The notes beneath the pieces are model-generated. The model saw only the letters and a list, made by a program, of their open reading frames with translations, did not search any database and had not been told where the DNA came from. Below, one piece after another: positions 8,698 through 28,910 of a stretch of DNA of 64,000 bases. This DNA comes from Firmicutes bacterium HGW-Firmicutes-7. Its GTDB lineage: Bacteria > Bacillota > Clostridia > Lachnospirales > Vallitaleaceae. The position numbers and the translations under genes were made by a program. The DNA is taken from the NCBI GenBank assembly GCA_002841375.1, contig PGZO01000004.1, positions 124,001-188,000 on the forward strand, read 5' to 3'. Position 1 is the stretch's first letter, and each line of letters starts with the position of its first letter.

Positions 8698-8708
8698 AAG
8701 GAGGCAAC

Positions 8709-9272
8709 ATGGCGCATATTATTTTAGTGACGGGTGGATCAAGAAGTGGAAAAAGTAGTTTTGCAGAAAAATACTTGAAAGAGATAGACGGAAAAACACT
8801 TTATATAGCTACAGCAATTGCTTTTGATGAAGAAATGAAAGATAGAGTTCTTAAGCATCAAAGTATGCGACCGGAAACTTGGGATACCTATGAAGGGTAT
8901 AAGCAGTTAGATCAAGTGATTGCAGACGATGGAGCGCAATATGCATGTCTTTTATTAGATTGTGTTACGCTCTGGGTGACCAATCTCATGTTTGAATATT
9001 TGGAAACAAATGATTATGATACACTCACGCAAGCGGAGATTGGTGGGGTAGAGAAAAAAATTATTTATGAAGTAGAGAGAATGATTGAACAGCTCAGGAG
9101 GAGTAACCTACACGTCGTTTTGGTGACGAATGAAGTTGGCTCTTCGCTTGTGCCAGAAAACAAGCTGGGTAGAATCTTCCGAGACATTCAAGGTAGGATT
9201 AATCAGTTATTAGGCAACGCAAGCGATGAGGTATATTTTGTTGTATGTGGGCAATCGATGAAGATTAAGTAA
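8709..9272 (+). CDS. cobU: Adenosylcobinamide kinase / adenosylcobinamide-phosphate guanylyltransferase
   Basis: CobU phosphorylates adenosylcobinamide and transfers GMP, giving the GDP-activated intermediate used by CobS. The 187-residue protein opens with the Walker A motif VTGGSRSGKSSFAE, then has IATAIAFDEEMKDRV, HQSMRPETWDTYE and LLLDCVTLWVTNLM, and later VTNEVGSSLVPEN, all diagnostic of the family. The RBS AAAGGAGGC is seven bases upstream. It is the last gene of the rightward operon; the partner genes cobS and cobC are at 25.4-26.8 kb on the other strand. Confidence 0.96.
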   Translation: MAHIILVTGGSRSGKSSFAEKYLKEIDGKTLYIATAIAFDEEMKDRVLKHQSMRPETWDTYEGYKQLDQVIADDGAQYACLLLDCVTLWVTNLMFEYLETNDYDTLTQAEIGGVEKKIIYEVERMIEQLRRSNLHVVLVTNEVGSSLVPENKLGRIFRDIQGRINQLLGNASDEVYFVVCGQSMKIK

Positions 9273-9361: not shown

Positions 9362-9928
9362 ATGAGTAATGATTTATATGAAATATTAGAAAATAGTCCA
9401 ATTATAGCTGGAATAAAAGATGATAAAGGTTTAAATACAGTATTAACATCTGATTGTGAAATCGTTTTTATCCTATATGGCAACGTATTAAATATCAGTG
9501 ACATTGTGCAAAAACTAAAAGATCATGGGAAAATAACATTTATTGATGTTGATCTTATTGACGGCTTTTCAAATAAAGAAATCGTTATTCAATACTTAAA
9601 AGAACGAACTCAAGCGGATGGGATTTTAAGTGCAAAAGCATCTATGATTAAGGCGGCAAAAGTACATGGATTTTTAACTGTGCATAGATTCTTCTTGATA
9701 GACTCATTTTCATTTCATAATCTTGATAAGCAAATACAAATTTCACAACCAGATTGTATAGAAATACTACCAGGCGCTATGCCAAAGGTAATTTCATGGG
9801 TTATCGAGAAAGTTAAATTGCCAGTTATTGCTGGAGGATTAGTTTGTGAGAAAGACGATGTTGTTGCAGCACTGAAAGCAGGAGCTACGGCTATTTCTTC
9901 AACAAATATTGAGGTATGGTCTTTGTAA
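9362..9928 (+). CDS. ygcP: GlpP-family antiterminator, YgcP-like
   Basis: GlpP proteins are TIM-barrel-like RNA-acting regulators that, in Bacillus, bind glycerol-3-phosphate and let RNA polymerase read through a leader terminator. The 188 residues show the family signatures: SPIIAGIKDDKGL at the N-terminus, ITFIDVDLIDGFSNKE, DGILSAKASMIKAAK, TVHRFFLIDS, CIEILPGAMPKVI and PVIAGGLV near the C-terminus. No glycerol genes are nearby. Its neighbours are the relatives of E. coli ygcU, ygcW and ygcE, and the E. coli cluster contains the GlpP-like gene ygcP, so I read it as the cluster's own regulator. The ligand is unknown; the phosphorylated product of the YgcE-type kinase is an inference. It follows cobU by 89 bases with a TATAAT at 9314 and RBS TGGAGG. 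Confidence 0.85.
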   Translation: MSNDLYEILENSPIIAGIKDDKGLNTVLTSDCEIVFILYGNVLNISDIVQKLKDHGKITFIDVDLIDGFSNKEIVIQYLKERTQADGILSAKASMIKAAKVHGFLTVHRFFLIDSFSFHNLDKQIQISQPDCIEILPGAMPKVISWVIEKVKLPVIAGGLVCEKDDVVAALKAGATAISSTNIEVWSL

Positions 9929-10026: not shown

Positions 10027-11580
10027 TTATGCCTTTCTGTCAGACTGTGAATATGCATCAAACTTTTTAGGTTTACCCATAATATAGATCAAAGATATAA
10101 GGCTCAAAATGCCTAGGAACAGAGCGGGAAATCCTCCTAAATAGGAAAGCATTCTAATTCCATCTATTCCAAGGGTAGAGATGAAAATTAATGCAACAGC
10201 ACCAACAATAATGCCCCAAGTAACTTTGATATATAGCGGTGCTTCTTGCCCACCGTCAGTAATACCAGTTGTACAAATACTCGCCATCGCATTTGTAGTT
10301 GAATCTGTTGCAGTAATAAATGAAATAAGCACAGCAAGTAAATAAATTCCAATTAATATTCCCGAAAATGGAAGGCTACCTAGAACGGCATATCCAGCAG
10401 CAGCAGAGCCTTGTTCATTCATAATTGTAAGGATATCTACTTTTCCAGTCATCTGTAAATGAATTGCTGTGCCACCAAGAACTGCCATCCATACGGCACT
10501 AAAAGCACTAGGAACTAGAAAGTTCATTGTAATGATTTCTTTTACTGTGTAGCCATACGCGATTCTAGCCAGAAACACCGCGGATACAGGTGCCCAAGCC
10601 ATCCAATTAGACCAATAGAAAGTCGTCCAACCTGATGCCCAGCCATCATTTGATGCGGCACCTGTAAATAAGGCTTTGTTAAAAATCCCTGATAAAAATC
10701 CTCCAAAGGATTCAGTACCTAAGCTAAACATGTATACGGTAGGTCCAAGAAGAATAAGCGCTGCAATAATAATATAGTACAGATATACATTTAAATCTGA
10801 TAATATTCTGATTCCTTTGAATAATCCTGTACCAGAAGAGATAATAAAAGCAATGGTTCCACATATGGTGATGATAATCCATAAGCTTTTATTGTTATCA
10901 ATGCCAAATAAGGCATTAATTCCACCGCCCATATTCATAACAGCAGTACCAAAGGATGCTGAAATAGCTGCGGCTACTGCGAATAAAATTATTGCATCTA
11001 CGATAACATCAAACTTATGTTGATTGCGGTTACCGATAATAGGTGATATCTGAGAACCAACACTAAAGGGCCTTTTCATATTATAATAAGCAAATGCAAA
11101 AACAATTGTGGGCACTGCGTAAAATGCATAGGGTATAAATGTCCAGTGGAGGAATAAGGTTTCCATAGCAAACTTGGCTGCAGCGGGAGACATGGGTTCA
11201 ATTCCTAAAGACGTTGGGGGATACGCAAGATGCCAGATTGGCTCAGCCGTTCCCCAGAATAAAATTCCTGCAGCAATGGTTGTACAGAGTGTTACTGCAA
11301 ACCATGATGATTTTTTTAACAATGGTTTAGCATTTGGACCACCTATTCTTACGTTACCCAGTGGTGAAAAATATGTTGCTGTAATGACTAGTAAGCAAGC
11401 GACCCCTGCCAAACTAAACATCCAACCACATTGTAAAGTCATAAAATCCTTAGCTAAAGTTGTGATTTTAAGAAAAGATTCATAGTTAATAAAGTTTAGA
11501 ATAATTGCGATGATCAGCAATATAAATGCCGGAAAAAAGACAATGGGTTTAATTCGATTCACTCCAGATTTTGATTTCAT
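10027..11580 (-). CDS. BCCT-family transporter (first copy), altered substrate site
   Basis: This is a 517-residue polytopic carrier of the betaine/carnitine/choline (BCCT) family. The start is the ATG at 11580 behind GGGAGGAAATT. The family's TM8 tryptophan region is present as FYWSNWMAW (residues 321-329) followed by PVSAVFLARI, and TM4 has HWTFIPYAFY (145-154). Compared from memory with BetP, one Trp of the usual AWW pair is Asn (N325), the second TM4 Trp is Tyr (Y151), and the glycine-rich GxGxG stretch reads TIAAG (101-105). The substrate is therefore probably not ordinary glycine betaine. It is divergent from ygcU, shares its leader architecture, and is closely similar to the carrier at 19176-20747. 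Confidence 0.9.
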   Translation of the reverse strand: MKSKSGVNRIKPIVFFPAFILLIIAIILNFINYESFLKITTLAKDFMTLQCGWMFSLAGVACLLVITATYFSPLGNVRIGGPNAKPLLKKSSWFAVTLCTTIAAGILFWGTAEPIWHLAYPPTSLGIEPMSPAAAKFAMETLFLHWTFIPYAFYAVPTIVFAFAYYNMKRPFSVGSQISPIIGNRNQHKFDVIVDAIILFAVAAAISASFGTAVMNMGGGINALFGIDNNKSLWIIITICGTIAFIISSGTGLFKGIRILSDLNVYLYYIIIAALILLGPTVYMFSLGTESFGGFLSGIFNKALFTGAASNDGWASGWTTFYWSNWMAWAPVSAVFLARIAYGYTVKEIITMNFLVPSAFSAVWMAVLGGTAIHLQMTGKVDILTIMNEQGSAAAGYAVLGSLPFSGILIGIYLLAVLISFITATDSTTNAMASICTTGITDGGQEAPLYIKVTWGIIVGAVALIFISTLGIDGIRMLSYLGGFPALFLGILSLISLIYIMGKPKKFDAYSQSDRKA

Positions 11581-11701
11581 AATTTCCTCCCAAGTATGTA
11601 ATTTAAATAACAATAACAAGAAAATCGGCTGCGCCGAGTTAAAATCCTCGTTACACATCTGCCGCTTTTCTAATTACTTATGCAGAACTTTCCTAGTAAA
11701 C

Positions 11702-11960: not shown

Positions 11961-11989
11961 TTGACATTTAGTAAAACTCTTTATATAAT
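11961..11989 (+). promoter_or_regulatory. Promoter of the ygcU operon
   Basis: A consensus TTGACA and TATAAT are separated by exactly 17 bases. Transcription would begin near 11996, only about 12 bases before the leader terminator. Between this promoter and that of the divergent transporter (11802-11960) I see only AT-rich sequence without a clear operator. Confidence 0.85.
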
Positions 11990-12007
11990 GTACGTAATTA
12001 CTAGTGC

Positions 12008-12068
12008 AGAGAGAAAAGTAATTTCCTACGGGGATTTCCTGTAGAAATTTACTTTTCTCTCTTTTTTT
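12008..12068 (+). terminator. Leader terminator (attenuator) of the ygcU operon
   Basis: A 22-base stem with two mismatches (AGAGAGAAAAGTAA on the 5' side, TTACTTTTCTCTCT on the 3' side) closes an 11-base loop and is followed by seven Ts. It lies directly after the promoter and about 105 bases before the ygcU start, so most transcripts should stop here unless an antiterminator acts. The rest of the leader, 12069-12173, shows no further clear structure apart from the RBS AAGGAG. Confidence 0.87.
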
Positions 12069-12173
12069 GTGCAGGTAATTTTTTTATATGCTCATTTATT
12101 AAATGGGTACATAACCTAGAACCTAGTAATGGGTTCAATCAATATCGTATTAAATTAAGGAGTATCATTAATT

Positions 12174-13619
12174 ATGAAAATTACAAGAGAACAAATCGTA
12201 GAAAACCTAATGAATATTGTTGGAGAAGATAGTGTTATTACAGATGAACAAGTTTTAAAAACAAGCAGTCATGATCGTTTTAGAAAATATGAGGATATTA
12301 ATGGCGTATATACTCAACCTATTCCAGCTGCGGTAGTTAAGGTCAAAAGCACAGACGAGGTGGCGCAAGTATTAAAATTTATGAACGAAAACCAACTAAA
12401 TGTAGTTCCAAGAACTGGCGCTTCTGCTACGGAAGGTGGTCTAGAAACAGCATTAGAAAATTCAGTTGTAGTTGATGGATCTGATATGAATAAAATCATC
12501 AAAATTGATGTATATAACATGTTAGTCACAGCTCAATGTGGTGTTTCTTTAGAGGTACTTGAAGATAAATTGCGTGAGCAAGGATATACAACAGGTCATT
12601 CGCCACAATCAAAACCGCTTGCTCAAATGGGTGGCTTGGTAGCTACAAGAAGTATCGGTCAGTTTTCAACGCTATATGGAGGAATTGAAGACATGCTTGT
12701 TGGGGTTGAAGCTGTTTTTCCAAATGGGAATATAACTAGAATTAAGAATGTTCCAAGACGTGCGGCGGGGCCAGATATTAGACATGTCATCATAGGAAGT
12801 GAAGGTGCCCTATGTTTTATAACAGAAGTAACAGTCAAAATTTTTAAATATATGCCAGAAAACAATTTACTATATGGATATACACTAGATAATATGAAGA
12901 CAGGTTTTGAAATTCTTCGTGAAGTTATGATTAATGGCTATAAACCATCAGTTGCACGGTTATATGATCCAGAAGATGGAGATTATCATTTTTCTCATTT
13001 TGCAGAAGGTAAATGTGTACTTATATTTATGGCTGAGGGACCAAAAGCCATTGCTGATGCAACTGGAAAAGCCATTGAAGAAATAGTAGCAAAGTATAAA
13101 GAGTGTAAGAAAGTAGATGAAAAGTTTATTCAAGTATGGTTTGATAACTTGAATTGGGATCCAGCTAAGGTTGCTGAAGAGCGGGTTGAAATTGTGGAGA
13201 CACATAATCTTGGTTTTACAACAGAAGTATCAGGTAATTGGGATATTATTAACGAAATCTACGAAGTGTGTATCGAACGAATACGGAATGAAATACCTGA
13301 CATAACATTAATTGGGGGACATTCATCTCATAGCTATTTGAATGGAACAAATATGTACTTTGTCTATTATTATAATTTAGTAAATATTAAGCCAGAAGAA
13401 GAGATTGATAAATATCATAATCCAATTCAAGATATTATTGTTGAGGAAACGATTAGGGCTGGTGGCTCTATGTGCCATCATCATGGTGTAGGGAAACATA
13501 GAACGCATTTTATACAAGAGGAGTATCAATCATCGTATTATATCCTTGAAACTTTAAAAAAATCCTTTGACCCGAATGGAATTATGAATGCTGGAACCAT
13601 CATTCCATTAAACAAATAA
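12174..13619 (+). CDS. ygcU: FAD-binding oxidoreductase, YgcU ortholog
   Basis: This is a 481-residue member of the type 4 FAD-binding oxidoreductase/transferase family (FAD_binding_4 plus C-terminal cap). The PRTGASATEGGLE and KPLAQMGGLVATRSIGQFS segments are the FAD-binding parts. The C-terminal GGSMCHHHGVGKHR (His435-437) is the motif I know from alkyl-dihydroxyacetonephosphate synthase, and FDPNGIMNAGTI ends the fold. It matches my recollection of E. coli YgcU along its whole length, including VPRRAAGPDIRH and GGHSSHSYLNGTNMYFVY. Function is unknown in E. coli. Here it heads an operon with its own ETF pair, which suggests a dehydrogenase that passes electrons to ETF. Confidence 0.9.
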   Translation: MKITREQIVENLMNIVGEDSVITDEQVLKTSSHDRFRKYEDINGVYTQPIPAAVVKVKSTDEVAQVLKFMNENQLNVVPRTGASATEGGLETALENSVVVDGSDMNKIIKIDVYNMLVTAQCGVSLEVLEDKLREQGYTTGHSPQSKPLAQMGGLVATRSIGQFSTLYGGIEDMLVGVEAVFPNGNITRIKNVPRRAAGPDIRHVIIGSEGALCFITEVTVKIFKYMPENNLLYGYTLDNMKTGFEILREVMINGYKPSVARLYDPEDGDYHFSHFAEGKCVLIFMAEGPKAIADATGKAIEEIVAKYKECKKVDEKFIQVWFDNLNWDPAKVAEERVEIVETHNLGFTTEVSGNWDIINEIYEVCIERIRNEIPDITLIGGHSSHSYLNGTNMYFVYYYNLVNIKPEEEIDKYHNPIQDIIVEETIRAGGSMCHHHGVGKHRTHFIQEEYQSSYYILETLKKSFDPNGIMNAGTIIPLNK

Positions 13620-13620
13620 T

Positions 13621-14433
13621 ATGAATATACTCGTATGTTTTAAAAATGTTCCTGATTTAGATGCATTATCAGTAAATGATTGGTTGATCGAAGATCATTT
13701 CCAGGTAGATACAAGTTATGTCAGAACAATGTTAAATCCCTATGATGAAAGCGCGCTTGAACTAACACTAAAATTGGGGGACGCTGAAAAGAATGATGAT
13801 TTTAAATTAACAGCTTTAACAGTTGGAACAAGTCATTTAGATAAAGTATTAAAAACCTTATATGCATTGAAATATGACTTAGGCGTAAGACTAGATTGTA
13901 AATCGGATATTAGATTTAACCCTTGTTTTGTTTCACGAATGATTTGCAATTATGTTAAGAATATAAAAAATCATCAGGTCATTATTTTAGGAAGTCAAAG
14001 TAACGTAGGTGACAATGCAAAAACACCATTATTAGTAGCCGAAGGGCTAGGAATTCCTTGCATTACTTCAGTTATTGGAATCAAGTTAGCAGAACAAAAA
14101 GATTGTCTAAGTATTACGTCTAAAATCGATGATTTGATCATTGAACAAATCGTTAAAGCACCGTTTGTTTTAGCGGTGGGAGATGTCCCAACTTCGTACA
14201 TTAGAGTGCCAACGCTTAAGGATAGAATTCAATACAAGGAAAAAGAGATTAAGGTTTTTACCCTTGAGGATTTAGAAATAAAAGAAAATGATGTTGAAGA
14301 AGAAAACGATACGCAGCTAATTGAATTATCTTATGAAAAGAATGGGAGAAATTGTGTATTTATTCAAGGACATCATTCTTCGGAAAAAGCAAATGTGTTA
14401 TACAAAGAATACTTAATGGAGAGGATAAAATAA
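13621..14433 (+). CDS. ygcR: Electron transfer flavoprotein beta-like subunit, YgcR-like
   Basis: This 270-residue protein has the ETF beta opening MNILVCFKNVPD, followed by MLNPYDESALE and a nucleotide-binding-like ILGSQSNVGDNAKTPLLVAE stretch. It resembles E. coli YgcR as I remember it (the DIRFNPCFVSRMI and TPLLVAEGLGIPC regions). It begins one base after the ygcU stop with no good Shine-Dalgarno sequence, so it is probably translated by coupling. The next gene is the matching alpha-like subunit. The family transfers electrons as an FAD/AMP heterodimer; whether this one binds FAD or AMP at each site cannot be told here. Confidence 0.85.
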   Translation: MNILVCFKNVPDLDALSVNDWLIEDHFQVDTSYVRTMLNPYDESALELTLKLGDAEKNDDFKLTALTVGTSHLDKVLKTLYALKYDLGVRLDCKSDIRFNPCFVSRMICNYVKNIKNHQVIILGSQSNVGDNAKTPLLVAEGLGIPCITSVIGIKLAEQKDCLSITSKIDDLIIEQIVKAPFVLAVGDVPTSYIRVPTLKDRIQYKEKEIKVFTLEDLEIKENDVEEENDTQLIELSYEKNGRNCVFIQGHHSSEKANVLYKEYLMERIK

Positions 14434-15419
14434 TGAAAACTGTAATGATACTTAATGGGTCGGTAAATGCCATATTAAAACAAGCAGAAGAATTAAATAA
14501 TTATTCTATTAAAAATTTTTCGAAAAATTCTTTAATTGAAGCATGGATTTTAACTGACCAGGATGTTAATTTCAATACGATTTCATTTTCTCCTCATATT
14601 AATTGCATTAAATTAGTAAAAGTTAGGACAAAACATGTTGCTGAGGAATATATTAAGGCGATTATCATGTTATATGAAAAATGCAAGCCCGAAATCATGA
14701 TATTTGGTAGTGAAGCGTTTGTTTCGGGTTTGGCTGTTAGAGTAGCTTGCCGTTTAAAGGGGAGTTCTTGTGTAGGTGTAAAAAGGAACCAGTATTTAGA
14801 AAAACATTTTATTGTTGAAAAGATGGTTTATTCAAATAATCTAACTGCTAAATTCATAATGAAAAATATGCCATATTGTATTTCTATTGCAAAAGGATTT
14901 AACCATATGACTGAGCAGTCTTCTATAACGGATGATAGTGAAGCGTATCAGAAACTACCTAATGTTGAAACAGTAACCTTTAAGACTGAGGTAGACACTG
15001 AATGGATTCGATCATTTACATTTGAATTAATAAATACTGAGGAGGGACTAAATACTTCCAAGGTAGTTGTTGCAATAGGAAAAGGTATTGGTAGTAAAGA
15101 AAAAGTAGTTTTGTACGAAAAGTTGGCGGCCCTTATGGAAGGTAAACTAGGGGCTAGTCGTCCAGTAGTGATGAATGCGTGGATGCCTATGGAACGCTTA
15201 ATTGGTGCATCGGGTTTAATTATTGCACCAGAACTATGTGTTGCCATAGGTGTGTCAGGAGCTGCTGCATTTACAGTTGGTATAGAAAAGAGTAAATTTA
15301 TCATTGCAATTAACAAGGATCAAGAAGCACCTATTTTTAAAATAGCAAATGTAGCAATTTGCGCTGATTGTGAAGAGGTTGCACAGGCGCTTATTAATAA
15401 ATTAAATGGAAGAATTTAG
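14433..15419 (+). CDS. ygcQ: Electron transfer flavoprotein alpha-like subunit, YgcQ-like
   Basis: I place the start at the ATG at 14433, which shares a base with the ygcR stop (TAATG), giving 328 residues. The N-terminal domain is divergent. The C-terminal FAD domain is typical: VVVAIGKGIGSKEKV, LGASRPVVMNAWMP, LIIAPELCVAIGVSGAAAFTVG and FIIAINKDQEAPIF. There is no ferredoxin domain, in contrast to the second alpha subunit at 17757. With ygcR it forms the electron acceptor of the YgcU-type flavoprotein. The function of the E. coli counterpart is not known. Confidence 0.87.
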   Translation: MKTVMILNGSVNAILKQAEELNNYSIKNFSKNSLIEAWILTDQDVNFNTISFSPHINCIKLVKVRTKHVAEEYIKAIIMLYEKCKPEIMIFGSEAFVSGLAVRVACRLKGSSCVGVKRNQYLEKHFIVEKMVYSNNLTAKFIMKNMPYCISIAKGFNHMTEQSSITDDSEAYQKLPNVETVTFKTEVDTEWIRSFTFELINTEEGLNTSKVVVAIGKGIGSKEKVVLYEKLAALMEGKLGASRPVVMNAWMPMERLIGASGLIIAPELCVAIGVSGAAAFTVGIEKSKFIIAINKDQEAPIFKIANVAICADCEEVAQALINKLNGRI

Positions 15420-15429
15420 AGGTGAAACA

Positions 15430-16908
15430 ATGGTATCAGAACTAATCAAACCATTTGATACAAGATATGAGGAATATTTAAGAGATGAATCCAAAATGGA
15501 TGGAAAGGCTAGTGGGATTTCATTTCCTCGGACAAAAGAGGAGGTTGTAACAATTGTCAACCAGATGATTAACACTTCAACTTCAATCACCGTCCAAGGG
15601 GGTAAAACTGGTATTTGTGGTGGTGCAGTACCGTCAGAAGGACATATTTTGAATTTATCGTATCTAAATAAAGTGATCGACTCATTTGAAACAGAAAATG
15701 GACGTTTCGTTAAAGTGGAAGCTGGATTGATGTTATCAGAATTACATAAATATCTTAATAAAGTGGATAAAACATATTTTTGGCCTCCAGACCCAACGGA
15801 GGATTCAGCTACAATTGGTGGTATTTTAGCTACAAACGCACAAGGCATATGCAGATATTTTTATGGAGATACAAAACAATATGTTGAGGAAATAAAATTA
15901 ATTGACGGTTATGGAAAAGAAAGAATTATACGTAGAGGTGAACGTATAGTAAATGAGCATAAATGTTTATTAGAAAGTGGAGGAACACTTGTCGTGGATA
16001 CAGCGCTTTTGAAACTGCCTCAAGATATTGATTTGATTGATATTTATTTAGGAAGTGAAGGGATGTATGGCATTATTGTTGAGGCTACGCTTAAATTGAT
16101 TGCAAGGCCTAAAGAAGTTTGGGGTATAAGCTTTTTCTTTGAAGAGCAAGAAAATATTTTTGGTTTTGTAGAGGCATTCATGCATACTTCCTATAATGAA
16201 GATGAAGCAGTAGTGGCTGCAGTGGAATATCTTGATAAAAGCACGCTAAAACACATTCATGTATTAAAGAAAGATGTTACCAAATTAAGAGAACTTCCGG
16301 ATGTAGATGAGAAATTTGTTGGTATGGTATATATAGAATTACATGGCAACCAGGAAGAACATATTGAAATAATAGCAGAAAAGATTATGGAATTAGCGAG
16401 CCATTTTCAAGAGGATGATACTTCAACCTGGGCCTTATCAGGGTTTGAAGAAATAGAAAAACTTAGAGCTTTTAGACATGCAGCACCTGAATCTATGAAT
16501 AGGGCCCTTGATCAAGTTAAATTACTTGATTCTCGTATCATAAAGCTTGCAACAGATATTGCGATGGAAAATATGACGTTTAAAGAACTGGTTACGAAGT
16601 ATCAACAGACGGCGTTGGAAAAAGGTATAAATATTGCTATTCATGGTCACGTAGCAGGGAATCAGTTGCACGTTGATTTACTGCCTGAAAATTATGAAGA
16701 ATATATAACGGGAAAAAAGCTTGTTAAAGATTGGGTGATTTGTGCTGTTAAAAGAGGCGGACAGGCTTTTAGCGAGTATGGTGTTGGAAAAATTAAAAAA
16801 GCGTTATATCAGTTATCATTAAGTGAGGAAGAACTAGGAAATATGCGTCATATCAAAAAAGTCTTTGATACGAATGGTATTTTGAATCCTGGAAATATGT
16901 TGGATTAA
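15430..16908 (+). CDS. FAD-linked oxidase, GlcD/D-lactate dehydrogenase type
   Basis: This 492-residue flavoprotein oxidises 2-hydroxy acids in known relatives (D-lactate, glycolate, D-2-hydroxyglutarate). I chose the ATG at 15430 behind GAGGTGAAACA; an in-frame ATG at 15406 lies inside the previous gene. VQGGKTGICGGAVPS and PPDPTEDSATIGGILATNAQG bind FAD. The usual metal and substrate motifs are changed: HGHVAGNQLHVD replaces the common HGHxGDGNLH, and SEYGVGKIKK has Tyr where relatives have the His of the EHGIG motif. With the next two genes it matches the LctD-LctB-LctC arrangement of electron-bifurcating lactate dehydrogenase. The altered residues argue for a different substrate. Confidence 0.86.
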   Translation: MVSELIKPFDTRYEEYLRDESKMDGKASGISFPRTKEEVVTIVNQMINTSTSITVQGGKTGICGGAVPSEGHILNLSYLNKVIDSFETENGRFVKVEAGLMLSELHKYLNKVDKTYFWPPDPTEDSATIGGILATNAQGICRYFYGDTKQYVEEIKLIDGYGKERIIRRGERIVNEHKCLLESGGTLVVDTALLKLPQDIDLIDIYLGSEGMYGIIVEATLKLIARPKEVWGISFFFEEQENIFGFVEAFMHTSYNEDEAVVAAVEYLDKSTLKHIHVLKKDVTKLRELPDVDEKFVGMVYIELHGNQEEHIEIIAEKIMELASHFQEDDTSTWALSGFEEIEKLRAFRHAAPESMNRALDQVKLLDSRIIKLATDIAMENMTFKELVTKYQQTALEKGINIAIHGHVAGNQLHVDLLPENYEEYITGKKLVKDWVICAVKRGGQAFSEYGVGKIKKALYQLSLSEEELGNMRHIKKVFDTNGILNPGNMLD

Positions 16909-16930
16909 TAAGGATAAAAGAGGTGCTACA

Positions 16931-17722
16931 TTGAAGATTGCAATATGTATCAAACAAGTTCCAGGAAGTAATGAATTAACAATGGATCAGGAGAAAGGCA
17001 TTTTGCAAAGAGAAGATGGGCGTGTAAAGATGAACCCATATGATCTTGTTGCGATTGAAACCGCTTTGCAAATAAAAGAAAAATATAAAGAGGTTGTTAT
17101 TACTTCGTTCTCAATGGGACCTAAGCGTGCTAGGGAGGTTATATTATCAAGTTATGCCATGGGCGTAGATCAAGGTGTACTGATTACAGATCCGAAATTT
17201 ATAGGATCAGATGTATATGCAACCGCATTGACCTTATCAAAAGGAATCTCATTAAATGAGGAATTTGATATCGTTATTTGCGGAAGGCAGACAACTGACG
17301 GTGATACAGGTCAAGTTGGACCTGCAATAGCAGAACATTTGGGAATTCCTCATATTTATGGCGTAATAGCGATTGATAAAATAGAAGAAAAACATATTTT
17401 TCTGTCACAGCAAATAGAAAATAAAAAAATATCACTTAGAGTAAAGATGCCTTGTGTACTTGTAATTTCGAAAGAAGCATATATTCCACGGCTTCCATCT
17501 TTGAAATTGAAACTTGAGGCGAAAAAGAAGAAAATAAAAATCATGTCCTTTGAAGATTTAAATGACTCGGATATAAGAAAATTTGGGCTAGAAGGTTCGC
17601 CAACCCAAGTGGAAAAAATATACTTTCCTAATAAATCTAAAAAAGAAACACTACTATCTGGAAACGCTAATGTTATTGTAGATGCAATCATAGAACGATT
17701 AAAAGGTGAGAAACTTATATAG
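16931..17722 (+). CDS. Electron transfer flavoprotein beta subunit, bifurcating-type (LctB-like)
   Basis: This 263-residue protein starts at a TTG behind AGAGGTGCTACA. It has the classical ETF beta sequence: MKIAICIKQVPGS, KMNPYDLVAIETAL, VICGRQTTDGDTGQVGPAIAEHLGIP and a C-terminal PRLPSLKLKLEAKKK. The TDGDTGQVGP loop binds the second nucleotide, which is FAD in bifurcating ETFs. It is clearly a different subfamily from the YgcR-like protein at 13621, so the operon encodes two distinct ETFs. Confidence 0.9.
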   Translation: MKIAICIKQVPGSNELTMDQEKGILQREDGRVKMNPYDLVAIETALQIKEKYKEVVITSFSMGPKRAREVILSSYAMGVDQGVLITDPKFIGSDVYATALTLSKGISLNEEFDIVICGRQTTDGDTGQVGPAIAEHLGIPHIYGVIAIDKIEEKHIFLSQQIENKKISLRVKMPCVLVISKEAYIPRLPSLKLKLEAKKKKIKIMSFEDLNDSDIRKFGLEGSPTQVEKIYFPNKSKKETLLSGNANVIVDAIIERLKGEKLI

Positions 17723-17756
17723 AGTTGTGCGAATTATAAATAAACGAGGTGATTAC

Positions 17757-18962
17757 TTGTCAGAACTTCAGATTAACGATGAAAAATGTGTTTTATGTAG
17801 GGCGTGCATTAGCGCTTGTCCATTTGGTGCACTTGAAGTAGTTGATAAAAAGTTAGTTGTGGAGGATAACTGTAGCTTATGTGGCGTATGTCTAAACACT
17901 TGCCAGTTTAATGCACTTTGTATTGAAAAGCAAGAGAATGGGTTACTAGATAAAAATAAATGGTCAGATATTTTAGTATTTGTTGAACACAATGAAGGTA
18001 AAATTCAGCCCGTTACATATGAATTAATAGGAAAAGCGCTTAAGTTAATAGAAGGAACTTCATATAAGGTTTACTGCTTGATTGTGGGATATAAAATAAC
18101 AGAACTTGCGAAAGAATTATCCTATTATAATGTTGAGAAAAATTTTATTTATGACCATAAAGCATTTAAGAATTATAGAGAGGATATATTTTGTAACGTT
18201 TTTCAAGACTGCATAAATGTATTAATGCCTGCTATTGTTTTAATAGGTGGGACAGATGTTGGTAAATCAATCGCACCTGCTGTTGCAACAAGTTTTCACT
18301 CGGGGCTCACTGCAGATTGTACAGAACTAATCTTAAATGAAAAATTAGAGCTCGTACAAATAAGACCTGCTTTTGGGGGAAATGTAATGGCTCAAATTGT
18401 AACGCCAAATCATAGGCCTCAATTTGCAACAGTAAGACCCAGTATTATGGAAGAAGCTAATAGAATTAAATCACCAAGAAATAATATTGTGAATTGCAAG
18501 TTAGATGAAAAAAAGCTGGTTTCACAAATAGAGGTACTTAAAGAAAAGCAGATGGAAACGAAAGAAGGTATTCAAGACGCAAAGATTTTGATTGTTGCAG
18601 GACAAGGATTCAAGCGTAAAGAAGATTTGTGGATGGTCGAGGAGCTTGCAATGCTTCTTAATGGTCAAGTAGCTTCGTCAAGAGCCTTAGTTGAGAAAGG
18701 GTGGATGCCTTATGAGAGACAGATTGGGCTATCAGGAAAAACTGTAAAGCCTGAAGCCATAATAACTTGTGGTGTGTCAGGATCAGTACAATTTATGACG
18801 GGAATGAAAACGAGTAAGACGATTATTGCAATAAATATTGATAGTGATTCTCCGATTTTCTCTATTGCCCACCAATCGATTGCGGGAGATATTTATGAAA
18901 TTCTTCCAAAGTTAATTCATCAATTAAAAGAAATAGATAAGCTTGCTAATAACAAGAATTAG
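17757..18962 (+). CDS. Electron transfer flavoprotein alpha subunit with 2[4Fe-4S] ferredoxin domain (LctC-like)
   Basis: I place the start at the TTG at 17757, eight bases after GAGGTG, giving 401 residues; an in-frame GTG at 17706 inside the upstream gene is less likely. Cys11, 14, 17 and 21 and Cys39, 42, 45 and 49 form two ferredoxin-type CxxCxxCxxxC motifs. The rest is a full ETF alpha: VLIGGTDVGKSIAPAVA, LVQIRPAFGGNVMAQI, ASSRALVEKGWMPYERQIG and IIAINIDSDSPIF. Ferredoxin-fused EtfA is the form seen in LctC of the bifurcating lactate dehydrogenase and CarE of caffeyl-CoA reductase. The gene closes the second oxidase/ETF module. Confidence 0.9.
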   Translation: MSELQINDEKCVLCRACISACPFGALEVVDKKLVVEDNCSLCGVCLNTCQFNALCIEKQENGLLDKNKWSDILVFVEHNEGKIQPVTYELIGKALKLIEGTSYKVYCLIVGYKITELAKELSYYNVEKNFIYDHKAFKNYREDIFCNVFQDCINVLMPAIVLIGGTDVGKSIAPAVATSFHSGLTADCTELILNEKLELVQIRPAFGGNVMAQIVTPNHRPQFATVRPSIMEEANRIKSPRNNIVNCKLDEKKLVSQIEVLKEKQMETKEGIQDAKILIVAGQGFKRKEDLWMVEELAMLLNGQVASSRALVEKGWMPYERQIGLSGKTVKPEAIITCGVSGSVQFMTGMKTSKTIIAINIDSDSPIFSIAHQSIAGDIYEILPKLIHQLKEIDKLANNKN

Positions 18963-19140: not shown

Positions 19141-19175
19141 TGGCTACTAACTAACTATATTTGGGAGGTTATAAA

Positions 19176-20747
19176 ATGAGTACAAAAACAAAAAGCAATA
19201 TTAGGCCATTTGTATTTTTTCCTGCATTTATTTTATTGCTCGTAACAATCATTTTGAACTTTGTAAATCCTGAGGCCTTTTTGACAGTTACTACAGCTGC
19301 AAAAGACTTTATGACAGTTCAATGTGGATGGATGTTTAGTTTAGCGGGGGTTGCATGCTTAATTGTAGTCATCTTAGCTTATTTTTCTCCATTAGGTGAG
19401 ATAAGGGTAGGTGGCGCTAATGCAAAACCATTACTAAAAAAAGGATCATGGTTTGCAATTACCTTAACGACAACTATTGCAGCTGGAATTATGTTTTGGG
19501 GAACGGCTGAACCACTTTGGCATCTTGCTTATCCCCCGATAGGTATTGAACCAATGTCTCCAGCAGCAGCTAAGTTCGCGATGGAAACCTTATTCCTTCA
19601 CTGGACATTTGTTCCTTATGCATTCTATACGGTTCCGACAATTGTATTTGCTTTTGCATACTATAATATGAAAAAGCCTTTCAGTGTAGGTTCACAGATT
19701 TCTCCTGTTCTTGGAAATCGTAATCAAAAGAAAATTGATATTTGGGTAGATGCAATTATCCTATTTGCTATAGGTACTGGAATAGCATCATCCTTTGCAA
19801 CTGCAGTGATGAATATGGGTGGTGGGATCAATGCATTAACAGGCATCAATAGCGATAAGACTTTATATATTATTATTACAATTGCGGCAACAGCATTGTT
19901 TACCTTTGCTTCCGGCTCTGGTTTATTTAAAGGAATCAAATTCCTAGCGAAGTTTAATGTATATTTATATTATATCATTATAGCAGCGTTAGTAATTTTA
20001 GGCCCTACAGTCTATATGTTTAGCTTGGGTACAGAATCCTTTGGTGGTTTCTTATCAGGTATATTTAGTAAGGCCTTGTTTACGGGTGCGGCTGCGTCAG
20101 ATTCATGGGCGTCTGGTTGGACAACCTTTTATTGGACAAACTGGATGGCATGGGCACCAGTTACGGCAGTATTTTTAGCGAGAATTTCATATGGATATAA
20201 AATTAAAGAAATTATTACGATGAACTTTTTAATTCCATCAGCTTTTGGTGCTGTTTGGATGACAATTGTAGGTGGAACTGCAATTAATTTCCAAATGACT
20301 GGAAGAGTTGACCTGATAGCAATAATGAATGAACAAGGCTCTGGAGCAGCGGGATATGCTATCCTTAATGAGTTGCCACTAGCTGGGGTATTAATGGTGA
20401 TTTATCTTATTGCAGTAATTGTATCGTTTGCGACTGCGACAGATTCAACAACCAATGCGATGGCAAGTATTTGTACAACTGGAATTACAGAAGCAGATCA
20501 AGAAGCACCTTTATATCTCAAGGTTTTATGGGGAGCTATTATTGGCTTAATCGCTGTTGTATTCTTAGCAACCTTTGGAGTAGATGGGATCAAGATGTTG
20601 TCCTACCTCGGCGGCTTCCCTGCACTTATTTTAGGTGTTTTAAGTCTGATTTCACTAGTATTCATTATGAATAAGCCAAAGAAATATGATATTGTTGACA
20701 ATGGGGAGATTGTTTCCCAAGAGGAAAGTGAAAGTACTGTTCTTTAA
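19176..20747 (+). CDS. BCCT-family transporter (second copy), altered substrate site
   Basis: This 523-residue carrier starts at the ATG behind GGGAGGTTATAAA. It is closely similar to the transporter at 10027-11580 throughout, with the same variant motifs: TTIAAGIMFWGTAEP, HWTFVPYAFY and FYWTNWMAWAPVTAVFLARI. The two copies presumably carry the same or closely related compounds, perhaps as an exchanger pair or with different affinities; this is inference. In the E. coli ygc cluster the equivalent positions hold MFS carriers (YgcS, YqcE). Downstream come ygcW and ygcE on the same strand. Confidence 0.92.
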   Translation: MSTKTKSNIRPFVFFPAFILLLVTIILNFVNPEAFLTVTTAAKDFMTVQCGWMFSLAGVACLIVVILAYFSPLGEIRVGGANAKPLLKKGSWFAITLTTTIAAGIMFWGTAEPLWHLAYPPIGIEPMSPAAAKFAMETLFLHWTFVPYAFYTVPTIVFAFAYYNMKKPFSVGSQISPVLGNRNQKKIDIWVDAIILFAIGTGIASSFATAVMNMGGGINALTGINSDKTLYIIITIAATALFTFASGSGLFKGIKFLAKFNVYLYYIIIAALVILGPTVYMFSLGTESFGGFLSGIFSKALFTGAAASDSWASGWTTFYWTNWMAWAPVTAVFLARISYGYKIKEIITMNFLIPSAFGAVWMTIVGGTAINFQMTGRVDLIAIMNEQGSGAAGYAILNELPLAGVLMVIYLIAVIVSFATATDSTTNAMASICTTGITEADQEAPLYLKVLWGAIIGLIAVVFLATFGVDGIKMLSYLGGFPALILGVLSLISLVFIMNKPKKYDIVDNGEIVSQEESESTVL

Positions 20748-20785
20748 AAATATAAAAAATATAAAAATAAAAGGAGATATTAACA

Positions 20786-21562
20786 ATGAATATAGTAGAT
20801 TTTTCAATGGATTTCTTTTCTTTAAAAGGGTTAAATGCTATTGTAACTGGAGGTAATACCGGATTAGGACAAGCATTTGCATTAGCTTTAGCAAAAGGAG
20901 GTGCAAATCTGTTTATTCCAAGTATTATGGAAGATGATGGCACAACAAAAACACTAATAGAAAATGAAGGCGTTAAAATGGCGTTTATGAAAATTGATAT
21001 AACTGAAGAAGGTGCAGCAAAAAAGGTTATTGATGGTTGCGTTGATGCTTTTGGTTCTGTTGATATTTTAGTAAATAGTGCAGGTATTTGTAAGATTGCA
21101 TCGGTGCAAGAATTTGGAAGAGCAGAATGGGATCCAATGATCAGCATCAATCTTACTGCAGCCTTTGAATTAAGCTACCAGGCAGCACAAAAAATGATTC
21201 CACAAAGAAGTGGAAAAATAATTAACATATGTTCTATGTTTTCATTTTTAGGAGGTCAATGGTCACCAGCCTATGCTGCAACCAAGCATGGTTTAGCAGG
21301 GTTTACAAAAGCATATTGTGATGAGCTGGCTCAATATAATATCCAAGTAAATGGTATTGCACCAGGGTATTATGCAACTGAAATTACAACAAAAACAAGA
21401 AGTAATCCTGAAACAAATAAAAAGGTACTTGACCATATTCCTGCAAACCGCTGGGGAGAAACGCAAGATTTAATGGGTACAACCGTTTTCTTAGCAAGTA
21501 GAGCTTCTGATTATGTAAATGGTCATATATTAGCTGTAGATGGCGGCTATTTAGTAAGGTAA
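20786..21562 (+). CDS. ygcW: Short-chain dehydrogenase/reductase, YgcW ortholog
   Basis: This 258-residue classical SDR has VTGGNTGLGQAFA as the NAD(P)-binding glycine motif, LVNSAGIC in place of NNAG, the catalytic Ser in ICSMFSFLGG, and YAATKHGLAGFTKAYCDEL with the YxxxK pair. VNGIAPGYYATEITT and the ASDYVNGHILAVDGGYLVR end are as in KduD and its relative YgcW. It agrees with remembered E. coli YgcW nearly throughout, including the N-terminal FSMDFFSLKG. KduD oxidises or reduces a sugar-acid ketone, so the substrate may be a small polyol acid; that is inference. RBS AAAAGGAGATA. Confidence 0.92.
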   Translation: MNIVDFSMDFFSLKGLNAIVTGGNTGLGQAFALALAKGGANLFIPSIMEDDGTTKTLIENEGVKMAFMKIDITEEGAAKKVIDGCVDAFGSVDILVNSAGICKIASVQEFGRAEWDPMISINLTAAFELSYQAAQKMIPQRSGKIINICSMFSFLGGQWSPAYAATKHGLAGFTKAYCDELAQYNIQVNGIAPGYYATEITTKTRSNPETNKKVLDHIPANRWGETQDLMGTTVFLASRASDYVNGHILAVDGGYLVR

Positions 21563-21577
21563 TTTACGTTTTACTTT

Positions 21578-21613
21578 CTATATGCGTTTATTCAATGGAA
21601 TAAATGCATATAG
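21578..21613. other. Strong hairpin between ygcW and ygcE
   Basis: Two 16-base arms (CTATATGCGTTTATTC and GAATAAATGCATATAG) pair fully as RNA, with one G-U, around a four-base loop. No T tract follows, so this may be a processing or stability element that separates the dehydrogenase from the kinase message. Confidence 0.55.
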
Positions 21614-21695
21614 ATTAACTTACTGATAAATAGAGTCATCACTTAAAATTTACGCTGAAAGGCATAACTATAAAAGAAAGGTATTGGTGGTTGTA

Positions 21696-23129
21696 ATGAG
21701 TAAAAAATATATTATAGGTGTTGATGGTGGGTCTCAGAGTTCAAAGGTTGTAATATTTGATCTTGAAGGGAATATTGTTTGTGAAGGTAAGGAAGATTTG
21801 CAACCTATGAGCTTACCTGAGCCAGGAATTGTAGAACATCCTAATGATGATCTTTGGGATTCTATCGTAATAGCCAGTAAAAAAGCCATGGAACGCTTTT
21901 CAGGAAATGTGGAAGATATTATTGGATTAGGCTTATGTACCATACGTTTTTGTAGAGCCTTATTAAAGGAAGATGGTACTTTAGCATCACCTGTTATGAG
22001 CTGGATGGATACAAGAGTATCTAAACCTTATGAGCACTTGAATCCTTCGGTAAAGTATGTTACGACTACTTCGGGTTATATTGCCCATAGATTTACAGGT
22101 AATTTTAACGATACTGCAGCAAATTATCAAGGTCAATGGCCTATAGATACCGATTCATGGCAATGGAGTGAAGATCCAGCAGTACAAAAGGATTTTAATA
22201 TTCCTCTAGAGATGTTATTTAACTTGCAAATGCCAGGAACGGTTTTAGGTGAGGTTACAGAAGCAGCATGTAAAGCAACCGGTATACCTATGGGTATTCC
22301 TGTAGTTGCAACAGCGAATGATAAGGCAGTTGAAGCTTTAGGTGCTGGATCATTATCTCAAAACACTGCGCTTGTTTCTTTAGGAACTTATATTGCAGCG
22401 ATGGTACACGGACATGAAAATCCAAAAAATACAACAAATTTTTGGACAAACTTTGCTTCTATTCCTGATAATTATTTGTATGAGAGCTATGGAATTCGAA
22501 GAGGTATGTGGACAGTTAGCTGGATTAAAAATCTTTTGGGAGATGAGATTGCTCTAAAAGCTGAAGCTTTAGGTATTCCAGCTGAGGAATATTTGAACAG
22601 AGAGGCAGAAAAGGTTCCAGCAGGTAGTAATGGGTTAATGACTGTTTTAGATTGGCTTGCTCCAGCACATTTACCCTTTAAAAAAGGCTTAATGATTGGC
22701 TTTGATGGCCGTCATACTGGAGCGCATATATATAGGTCTATATTAGAGGCAATTGCTTTAACGATGAAAAATCATGCAGATGCAATGTGCGCTGAATTAG
22801 ATATAGAGCTAGAAAATATTATTATTTCAGGAGGAGGCTCTAATAGTGCATTGTTTATGCAAATATTCGCTGATGTGTTTGGCGTTTCAGCTTCAAGAAA
22901 TGAGGTCAATGGTTCTGCGAGTTTAGGTTCAGCAATCTGTGCCGCAGTTGCAGTAGGAGCGTACGATAATTATGAAATTGCTATAGAAAAAATGGTACGA
23001 ATTAGAGACACCTTCAGCCCAATCAAAGAGAACACAGACTTATATAAAAGAATGAATAATGAAGTTTTTAAAGATATTACTGTCTATACAGATGAAGTCT
23101 TAAAAAAGTCATATCCAATTTTCGGTTAA
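21696..23129 (+). CDS. ygcE: FGGY-family carbohydrate kinase, YgcE ortholog
   Basis: This is a 477-residue kinase of the xylulokinase/glycerol kinase superfamily. The ATG at 21696 follows GGTGG; an upstream TTG is less likely. YIIGVDGGSQSSKVVIFDLEGN is the phosphate-binding opening, VSLGTYIAAMVHG and IIISGGGSNSALFMQIFADVF complete the ATP site. It matches remembered E. coli YgcE, including LQPM, SWMDTRVSKPYEH, YQGQWPID and YGIRRGMWTVSW. YgcE has no assigned substrate to my knowledge. As the last metabolic gene of the operon it probably phosphorylates the imported compound or its oxidised or reduced form, and the product may be the ligand of the GlpP-type regulator. Confidence 0.9.
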   Translation: MSKKYIIGVDGGSQSSKVVIFDLEGNIVCEGKEDLQPMSLPEPGIVEHPNDDLWDSIVIASKKAMERFSGNVEDIIGLGLCTIRFCRALLKEDGTLASPVMSWMDTRVSKPYEHLNPSVKYVTTTSGYIAHRFTGNFNDTAANYQGQWPIDTDSWQWSEDPAVQKDFNIPLEMLFNLQMPGTVLGEVTEAACKATGIPMGIPVVATANDKAVEALGAGSLSQNTALVSLGTYIAAMVHGHENPKNTTNFWTNFASIPDNYLYESYGIRRGMWTVSWIKNLLGDEIALKAEALGIPAEEYLNREAEKVPAGSNGLMTVLDWLAPAHLPFKKGLMIGFDGRHTGAHIYRSILEAIALTMKNHADAMCAELDIELENIIISGGGSNSALFMQIFADVFGVSASRNEVNGSASLGSAICAAVAVGAYDNYEIAIEKMVRIRDTFSPIKENTDLYKRMNNEVFKDITVYTDEVLKKSYPIFG

Positions 23130-26058: not shown

Positions 26059-26084
26059 AATTCACCTTTTTAGGCCTTTCTTTA

Positions 26085-26804: not shown

Positions 26805-26856
26805 TGTAAGCTCCTTTTTTGTTTCAAGGTGTTTTTGTAAGGAATTGTTTAATACT

Positions 26857-26885
26857 ATTATATAGTCTAACATCTGTTTCGGCAA
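26857..26885 (-). promoter_or_regulatory. Promoter of cobS-cobC
   Basis: On the minus strand TTGCCG and TATAAT are separated by 17 bases, about 50 bases before the cobS start codon. There is no room for a cobalamin riboswitch between this promoter and the gene. Confidence 0.65.
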
Positions 26886-28874: not shown

Positions 28875-28910
28875 TACAATTACCTCCAATCACATCAACT
28901 TTGTGGAATA

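What the first reader, a model, noticed from the sequence alone, without database searches (positions are those of the whole stretch)
12174..18962. Two different flavoprotein/ETF modules in a row, one with ferredoxin-fused EtfA
The operon has a YgcU-YgcR-YgcQ module without iron-sulfur clusters and an LctD-LctB-LctC-like module with two [4Fe-4S] clusters on EtfA. The second arrangement is that of bifurcating lactate dehydrogenase. E. coli uses FixC- and FixX-like proteins (YgcN, YgcO) at this point, so the anaerobe may couple the same oxidation to ferredoxin and NADH instead of quinones. Two ETFs beside each other raise the question whether subunits mix or electrons pass between them.
Basis: partly seen in the sequence, partly recalled or inferred. 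Interest (0 to 1): 0.72.

Follow-up and report, generated by a model that had tools for sequence, protein, structure and literature searches.

The report
Two-ETF electron relay in ygc operon
In an anaerobic bacterium, an operon related to E. coli's unexplained ygc genes carries two different electron-carrier flavoproteins joined by a lactate-dehydrogenase-like protein that has lost a key catalytic residue, which suggests that electrons hop from one carrier to the other before reaching NAD+ and ferredoxin.

Summary
The genes are as described, one tight + strand block: YgcU (12174-13619), EtfB1/EtfA1, LctD-like, EtfB2/EtfA2 with an N-terminal two-cluster ferredoxin domain. They hold the only ETF-domain genes in the genome. 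ETF1 is the E. coli YgcR/YgcQ type and lacks the beta-FAD motif. ETF2 is the LctB/LctC type and keeps DGDTGQVGP, SPT and Arg205, but the Arg of the NAD+ motif RxFxG is Pro. YgcU is of the alkyl-DHAP-synthase (AGPS) family. Among 89 further YgcU loci, LctD-like always comes with ETF1 (14 of 14) and never with the quinone-linked YgcN/YgcO, which fills the same slot in enterics. The LctD-like subfamily has lost catalytic residues in 7 of 14 members (at least five independent changes) against 0 of 10 lactate-type LctDs; the window's own copy has Tyr for the catalytic His. Best reading: YgcU -> ETF1 -> LctD-like (flavin adaptor) -> ETF2 -> NAD+ with reduced ferredoxin (confurcation). Electron flow is inferred, not shown. 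New variant of a known kind. In passing: a conserved leader terminator shared from Clostridia to E. coli.

The parts
9362..9928 (+). GlpP/YgcP, glycerol-3-phosphate responsive antiterminator
   Evidence: PF04309 1.5e-63; orthologue E. coli ygcP, PF04309 1.4e-62
11961..11989 (+). sigma-70-like promoter, 12 of 12 consensus bases
   Evidence: consensus match only
11996..12080 (+). leader hairpin/terminator, candidate GlpP (YgcP) antitermination site
   Evidence: -35 kcal/mol, z -7.14; same element in relatives and E. coli
12174..13619 (+). YgcU, AGPS-family FAD protein
   Evidence: phmmer vs AGPS 4bby 6.3e-44; Foldseek top AGPS 5ae2, TM 0.84
13476..13484 (+). YgcU His435-His437, the HHH motif shared with AGPS
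   Evidence: invariant in 14 of 14 YgcU aligned
13621..14433 (+). EtfB1 (YgcR type), no beta-FAD motif
   Evidence: PF01012 2.4e-14; VGDNAKTPL in place of DGDTAQVGP; tree ETF1 100*
14430..15419 (+). EtfA1 (YgcQ type), alpha-FAD domain present
   Evidence: PF00766 9.3e-26; tree ETF1 99*
15406..16908 (+). LctD-like FAD protein, own clade
   Evidence: LctD 7qh2_C 9e-27; AF2 model pLDDT 86.5, Foldseek D-LDH/LctD; clade 99*
16777..16779 (+). Tyr458, at the position of LctD catalytic base His423
   Evidence: role of His423 from PMC9232219, of mLDHD His443 from PMC10589216
16931..17722 (+). EtfB2 (LctB type), TTG start
   Evidence: LctB 1.5e-72
17192..17206 (+). PKFIG, NAD+ motif RxFxG with Arg replaced by Pro
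   Evidence: motif from PMC9232219
17297..17323 (+). DGDTGQVGP, beta-FAD motif
   Evidence: motif from PMC9232219
17706..18962 (+). EtfA2 (LctC type) with N-terminal ferredoxin domain, GTG start
   Evidence: LctC 8.4e-101, CarE 1.3e-86
17769..17936 (+). ferredoxin domain of EtfA2, 2 x CxxCxxCxxxC
   Evidence: Fer4 4.3e-11; Cys positions
10027..11658 (-). BCCT transporter
   Evidence: PF02028 7.2e-119
19161..20747 (+). BCCT transporter
   Evidence: PF02028 1.2e-119
20786..21562 (+). SDR dehydrogenase, YgcW type
   Evidence: PF00106 4.7e-52; in 83 of 89 other YgcU loci
21684..23129 (+). FGGY kinase, YgcE type
   Evidence: PF02782 6.5e-23; in 87 of 89 other YgcU loci

Best explanation
The five genes behind ygcU are an electron-disposal cassette for the ygc (glyceryl-phosphate-type) catabolic pathway of an anaerobe. 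YgcU, an AGPS-family flavoenzyme, is reduced by its substrate and passes electrons to ETF1, a one-FAD (non-bifurcating) carrier. ETF1 hands them to the FAD of the LctD-like protein, which in this organism no longer works as a 2-hydroxyacid dehydrogenase but as a docking and relay flavoprotein. ETF2 takes them from there as in the Ldh-EtfAB complex and, together with electrons from reduced ferredoxin through the fused two-cluster domain, reduces NAD+ (confurcation). LctD-like + ETF2 thus replaces the quinone-linked YgcN-YgcO of enterics. Shown: gene content, motifs, co-occurrence, absence (by the searches made) of other ETFs and of YgcN-type acceptors in this genome, active-site losses. Inferred: every electron-transfer step, the partners' contacts, the direction, and the kind of substrate.
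For: The only ETF-domain genes found in the genome are these four, and no YgcN/ETF-QO-type acceptor is found in it, so ETF1 has only YgcU and LctD-like as visible flavoprotein partners. In 89 other YgcU loci, LctD-like occurs only with ETF1 (14 of 14), YgcN/O only with ETF1 (39 of 39), and the two never together (0 of 89). In G004 (97% complete) the sole EtfA gene found in the genome is EtfA1, lying between YgcU and LctD-like, so it must serve both if both use an ETF. The genomes G479, G489, G490, G491 have exactly two EtfA genes, those of the cassette. Four loci put a single ETF2-like ETF in the operon of YgcU without ETF1 or LctD, which ties YgcU to bifurcating-type ETFs. LctD-like has lost catalytic residues in 7 of 14 (0 of 10 lct-type), needing 5 changes on the tree, while Arg328 (14 of 14) and the interflavin Glu139 (12 of 14) are kept. 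Precedent for a canonical ETF joining an Ldh to another flavoprotein: F. nucleatum Ldh/ETF/Bcd (PMC12630350, passages).
Against: Seven of 14 ygc LctD-like proteins keep all six catalytic positions tested, so they may be active dehydrogenases. Six YgcU loci have ETF1 with neither acceptor module in view. The core enzymes occur without any ETF in view in 26 of 89 loci, and two of those genomes have no ETF_alpha gene at all, so YgcU need not be an ETF donor; AGPS itself is not a net redox enzyme (PMC3509576, passages). In L086 the pairs YgcU-ETF1 and LctD-ETF2 are separate blocks, as expected for two parallel modules. The NAD+ motif Arg is Pro in the window's EtfB2. EtfB1 keeps the Gly that is invariant in bifurcating ETFs (PMC12630350), so a second FAD in ETF1 is not excluded. 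No complex could be modelled.
Confidence: 0.45

Rival explanations
1. Two parallel oxidations: YgcU feeds ETF1, and LctD-like oxidises a second intermediate of the same pathway (a 2-hydroxyacid or similar) and feeds ETF2, as in confurcating lactate dehydrogenase. ETF1 then passes its electrons to an acceptor not seen here.
For: Seven of 14 ygc LctD-like proteins keep all tested catalytic residues; L086 has the two pairs as separate blocks; ETF2-LctD pairing matches Lct.
Against: Five independent losses at catalytic positions, including the window's own His423Tyr, while SDR, YgcU and kinase stay 57-92% identical to the window's in the loci with ETF1+LctD that have an SDR; no other acceptor for ETF1 in the genome by the searches made; LctD never without ETF1.
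Confidence: 0.3
2. YgcU is non-redox, as AGPS: it cleaves or exchanges an ether or ester on a keto-phosphate. The ETF1-LctD-ETF2 block disposes of electrons from another step, present only in some hosts.
For: AGPS fold and motif; core loci without ETF, two of them in genomes with no ETF_alpha gene; AGPS uses oxidised flavin with no net redox change (PMC3509576, passages).
Against: YgcU is the gene directly 5' of EtfB1 (1 bp apart), and single-ETF loci have the ETF in the YgcU operon; the ETF-free hosts named are aerobes or facultative (titles; lifestyle recalled), where O2 could oxidise YgcU.
Confidence: 0.15
3. The cassette runs as a bifurcating reductase: NADH reduces ferredoxin through ETF2 while the other electron goes via LctD-like/ETF1 to reduce a YgcU-bound substrate.
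For: The same parts can run both ways in Ldh-EtfAB (PMC9232219 Table 2).
Against: Kinase, SDR, importer and G3P-type antiterminator point to catabolism; the enteric version ends in a quinone-type acceptor.
Confidence: 0.06
4. ETF subunits mix (EtfA1 with EtfB2 or the reverse), giving hybrid carriers.
For: Both pairs lie in one gene block without internal terminator-like site.
Against: EtfA and EtfB trees separate the same two groups (99* and 100*) with no cross-over.
Confidence: 0.03

Closest known systems
Ldh-EtfAB (LctBCD) of Acetobacterium woodii, confurcating lactate dehydrogenase, PDB 7QH2
   Same: EtfB2, EtfA2 and LctD-like are best matched by LctB, LctC, LctD; beta-FAD motif, SPT, Arg205 kept; Fd domain on EtfA
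   Different: LctD-like in a separate clade, with His423Tyr, Gly138Thr, Gly153Gln; Arg of RxFxG is Pro; two clusters rather than one; a second ETF and YgcU beside it
E. coli ygc cluster (ygcN-O-P, ygcW-U-S-R-Q, yqcE-ygcE)
   Same: YgcU, YgcR/Q, YgcW, YgcE, YgcP homologues and the leader element
   Different: quinone-type YgcN and YgcO in place of LctD-like + ETF2; YgcS/YqcE transporters in place of BCCT
FixABCX / EtfABCX
   Same: an ETF handing electrons to a second flavoprotein
   Different: no FixC/ETF-QO-type protein found in this genome
CarCDE caffeyl-CoA reductase-ETF
   Same: two-cluster Fd domain fused to EtfA
   Different: no acyl-CoA dehydrogenase partner in the operon
F. nucleatum Ldh/ETF/Bcd
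   Same: a canonical-type ETF as bridge between an Ldh and another flavoprotein (PMC12630350, passages)
   Different: there Ldh is active and Bcd is the acceptor; no second ETF in the relay
AGPS (alkyl-DHAP synthase)
   Same: YgcU fold and the Arg/Tyr/HHH residues
   Different: bacterial, in a catabolic operon, next to an ETF

Membership tests
Confurcating lactate dehydrogenase (Ldh-EtfAB) | EtfB beta-FAD motif DGDTAQVGP | tested here: met
   DGDTGQVGP in EtfB2
Confurcating lactate dehydrogenase (Ldh-EtfAB) | EtfB NAD+ motif RxFxG | tested here: not met
   PKFIG: Arg replaced, Phe and Gly kept
Confurcating lactate dehydrogenase (Ldh-EtfAB) | EtfB SPT anchor and EtfA Arg205 | tested here: met
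   GSPTQVE; Arg
Confurcating lactate dehydrogenase (Ldh-EtfAB) | LctD catalytic His423 with metal ligands His377, His384, Glu422 | tested here: not met
   ligands kept, His423 is Tyr
Confurcating lactate dehydrogenase (Ldh-EtfAB) | Fd domain on EtfA | tested here: met
   two clusters here, one in A. woodii
Confurcating lactate dehydrogenase (Ldh-EtfAB) | reduced-ferredoxin-dependent lactate:NAD+ activity | not testable with these tools
   needs enzyme assay
Bifurcating ETF (EtfB2/EtfA2) | two FAD, NAD(H) site, place in the bifurcating clade | tested here: inconclusive
   beta-FAD motif and tree met; NAD motif altered; cofactors not measured
Canonical (non-bifurcating) ETF (EtfB1/EtfA1) | no beta-FAD motif, alpha-FAD domain present | tested here: met
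   5 of the 6 positions changed in the published delta-b-FAD variant differ in EtfB1; PF00766 9.3e-26
Canonical (non-bifurcating) ETF (EtfB1/EtfA1) | bulky residue instead of the Gly invariant in bifurcating EtfB | tested here: not met
   EtfB1 keeps Gly at that column; criterion from PMC12630350
FixABCX / ETF:quinone oxidoreductase | FixC/ETF-QO-type flavoprotein | tested here: not met
   no PF05187, PF21162 or YgcN match in the own genome
AGPS | fold and catalytic Arg419, Tyr578, HHH | tested here: met
   YgcU Arg262, Tyr395, His435-437 aligned, invariant in 14 of 14 YgcU; fold
AGPS | alkyl-DHAP synthesis | not testable with these tools
   needs assay

The most novel reading that the evidence does not exclude
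The LctD-like protein is a pseudo-dehydrogenase: a lactate-dehydrogenase scaffold turned into a flavin adaptor that lets a non-bifurcating ETF discharge into a bifurcating ETF. This would be an ETF-to-ETF relay, a way to plug a flavoenzyme with no NAD/Fd partner of its own (here of the AGPS family) into confurcation without a membrane quinone.
Probability: 0.4. Interest if true: 0.75.

Novelty: new variant of a known kind. Interest (0 to 1): 0.6.

Why it matters
If true, it shows how anaerobes replace a quinone-linked electron exit by a soluble confurcating one through a recycled dehydrogenase, and it makes the unexplained ygc genes of E. coli testable: the anaerobic version points to a flavoenzyme-linked oxidation of a glyceryl-phosphate-type compound with a mid-range redox potential. 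It also offers a natural pair of bifurcating and non-bifurcating ETFs acting on related flavoprotein folds in one cell.

Tried and rejected
Considered and rejected: a lactate dehydrogenase reading (His423Tyr, separate clade). Subunit mixing (trees). ETF1 'lacking' Arg205: my first reading was wrong; the column holds Lys in the window and Arg in E. coli YgcQ, so it does not separate the two ETFs. PF05187 as the test for a quinone acceptor: it did not ring in the E. coli control, so I repeated with PF21162 and with YgcN itself. A betaine-lipid head group as substrate (BCCT and, in L026, a glycine-betaine ABC transporter): one paper search gave nothing useful; left as a guess and not claimed.

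Led nowhere: E. coli ygc gene names in papers: only genome-wide promoter, regulator, binding-site or toxin-expression papers in the listings, none opened. Searches found no report of a two-ETF relay or of a YgcU function in the listings read; the library is open-licence PMC only, so this is not a claim that none exists. Rfam gave no match in the window. The organism of the window was not identified.

Rows dropped: L088 LctD left out of the active-site count because its frame breaks before the C-terminus; L112 and L125 left out of the 89 as the same genomes as L025 and L089; L103, L104, L105 and L126 are the window or repeats of loci counted otherwise. L120, L123, L124 (LctD-like without YgcU in view) were in the tree but not in the counts; L123 is truncated. 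Nine 'lct-type' LctDs are so called by sequence and neighbour, not by experiment; the tenth is A. woodii. The trees are quick trees without bootstraps, and the LctD tree includes the trait columns. Part of the output was cut; counts come.
Full report
What is there. The window lies in a 4.08 Mb genome in 89 contigs, 99% complete. From 12174 to 18962 six genes follow each other on the + strand with at most 22 bp between them: YgcU, EtfB1, EtfA1, LctD-like, EtfB2, EtfA2. A BCCT transporter, a YgcW-type SDR and a YgcE-type FGGY kinase follow at 19161-23129, and GlpP/YgcP and a second BCCT gene lie upstream. A search of the whole genome with the ETF domain finds four matches, all here, so the cell has no other ETF by this test.

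YgcU. Sequence and fold place it in the AGPS family: the best PDB chain is AGPS at 6.3e-44, and the AlphaFold2 model (mean pLDDT 85.3) is best matched by AGPS, TM 0.84. Arg262, Tyr395 and His435-437 align with AGPS Arg419, Tyr578 and the HHH motif (importance of the Dictyostelium Arg and Tyr from PMC3509576, passages; which of its residues correspond, and the numbering of HHH, is recalled) and are invariant in the 14 YgcU aligned. A further Arg (337) sits like AGPS Arg515 by spacing, but is not kept in distant YgcUs.

ETF1. EtfB1 and EtfA1 group with E. coli YgcR and YgcQ (100* and 99*). The beta-FAD stretch DGDTAQVGP, shown by mutagenesis to be needed for the second FAD in Ldh-EtfAB (PMC9232219, section), reads VGDNAKTPL, and the NAD+ and SPT motifs are absent. 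The alpha-FAD domain is there. One sign points the other way: the Gly of the motif, invariant in bifurcating ETFs according to PMC12630350 (passages), is kept.

ETF2. EtfB2 and EtfA2 are closest to LctB (1.5e-72) and LctC (8.4e-101). DGDTGQVGP, SPT and Arg205 are kept; in RxFxG the Arg is Pro. In other ygc loci this position is Arg, Lys, Ser or Pro, and in the four other bifurcating PDB chains printed it is Arg. The ferredoxin domain with two clusters is found in the window and L025 only, 2 of 10 complete EtfA2 of ygc loci; in Ldh-EtfAB its loss abolishes confurcation, so the others would have to take ferredoxin directly.

LctD-like. The model (pLDDT 86.5) is best matched by D-lactate dehydrogenase structures, LctD being seventh. 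It belongs to a clade of its own (99*) apart from lct-type LctDs (100*). The positions Arg328, His377, His384, Glu422 and His423 of LctD bind substrate and metal, and the five residues of mouse LDHD that align with them each abolish activity when changed to Ala (PMC10589216, passages; alignment). Adding Asp346, all six are kept in 10 of 10 lct-type proteins but in only 7 of 14 ygc ones: the window has Tyr for His423; L084 and L085 have Tyr at 384 and 423; L086 Gln at 384 and 423; L118 Thr at 377 and Asn at 423; L028 and L029 Tyr at 346 and Gln at 422. The tree needs five changes. Glu139, which the Ldh-EtfAB abstract places between the flavins (a figure legend numbers it 137), is kept in 12 of 14, and Gly138 and Gly153 at the flavin are replaced in 14 of 14. 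So the flavin surroundings have changed throughout, and the 2-hydroxyacid chemistry is not under steady selection. Mean column identity is 42% in the LctD alignment (A1, which includes three lct-type rows) and 69% for YgcU.

Neighbourhoods. Among 89 other YgcU loci (80 by one scan of named genomes, 9 from unnamed ones): ETF1 with YgcN/YgcO 39; no ETF in view 26; ETF1+LctD+ETF2 10; ETF1 alone 6; ETF1+LctD 4; ETF2-like alone 4. LctD and YgcN/O are exclusive, and both come only with ETF1. YgcN has an ETF-QO ubiquinone-binding domain. In 24 genomes searched, including the window's, only that of Sporomusa malonica has such a domain; YgcN itself finds nothing at 1e-8 in the window's genome. G004 has one EtfA in all, EtfA1, between YgcU and LctD. 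G479, G489, G490 and G491 have two EtfA genes each, those of the cassette. Cryobacterium lactosi and Serratia quinivorans, with YgcU loci lacking ETF, have no ETF_alpha match, so the core reaction can do without one. In two divergent cassettes (L118, L121) an FGGY kinase and GlpA/GlpB-like flavoproteins precede YgcU (the GlpA/GlpB names are my reading of DAO + Fer2_BFD and Pyr_redox_2), which together with GlpP supports glycerol-3-phosphate-like chemistry. Rnf-type genes are present in the genome, so ferredoxin and NAD can be exchanged.

Mechanism. The simplest account of these facts is a relay YgcU -> ETF1 -> LctD-like -> ETF2 -> NAD+ with reduced ferredoxin. Lactate/pyruvate and G3P/DHAP have similar mid-range potentials (recalled), so the energetic problem that confurcation solves for lactate would arise here too. 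Every transfer step is inference. The main rival is that LctD-like still oxidises a second compound; the seven intact members keep it open. A third reading takes YgcU as non-redox, like AGPS.

Verdict. Known kinds of parts in an arrangement I did not find described in the papers searched (listings, with PMC9232219 read in named sections, and PMC12630350, PMC3509576, PMC10589216 as passages). New variant of a known kind; interest 0.6.

In passing. Upstream of YgcU a perfect sigma-70-like promoter is followed by a strong terminator hairpin. The element, including GAGAAAAGTAA and an upstream RTTAC that can pair with GTAAY, recurs before ygc genes from Clostridia to E. coli K-12: 65 of 137 loci hold the exact 11-mer, though many loci are close relatives and some are repeats of the window. 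In the 30 sources looked at, 12 had no match to the motif. It is a candidate target of GlpP/YgcP antitermination; binding is not shown.

Noticed in passing
window 11996-12080; L005 20499-20560; also L023-L027, L030, L035, L042, L046, L053, L080, L091, L113, L122: Conserved leader RNA: terminator hairpin GAGAAAAGTAAY...CTTTTCTC + T run, preceded by RTTAC that can pair with GTAAY as an antiterminator; seen from Clostridia to E. coli K-12 (between ygcW and yqcE). Candidate GlpP/YgcP antitermination target; no Rfam family matched in the window.
   Followed up: partly
L118, L121: Divergent YgcU cassettes preceded by an FGGY kinase, a GlpA-like (DAO + BFD) and a GlpB-like flavoprotein.
   Followed up: partly
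L119: YgcU-type gene followed by an MTHFR-like gene and then EtfB1-EtfA1; the only EtfA found in that genome.
   Followed up: no
L114, L115, L116, L089: YgcU operons with a single ETF2-like ETF and no ETF1 or LctD; L089 has the full beta-FAD motif, the other three DGDTxHVP/DGDTxHIP.
   Followed up: partly
L026 13269-17880: Proline racemase family gene and glycine-betaine-type ABC transporter beside a YgcU-ETF1 locus; with the BCCT genes elsewhere this hints at a quaternary-ammonium substrate.
   Followed up: no
window 7630-9272 and 25459-26885: The ygc operon lies between cobT/cobU and a histidine-phosphatase/cobS pair, that is inside a cobalamin cluster.
   Followed up: no
window 27306-29840 (-), 30218-32775 (+): A second FGGY kinase with a sugar-binding transcription regulator next to an ABC transporter.
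   Followed up: no
L113 / G224:C73:16259-16495: Partial Rnf-Nqr match at the contig end next to the ygc cassette.
   Followed up: no
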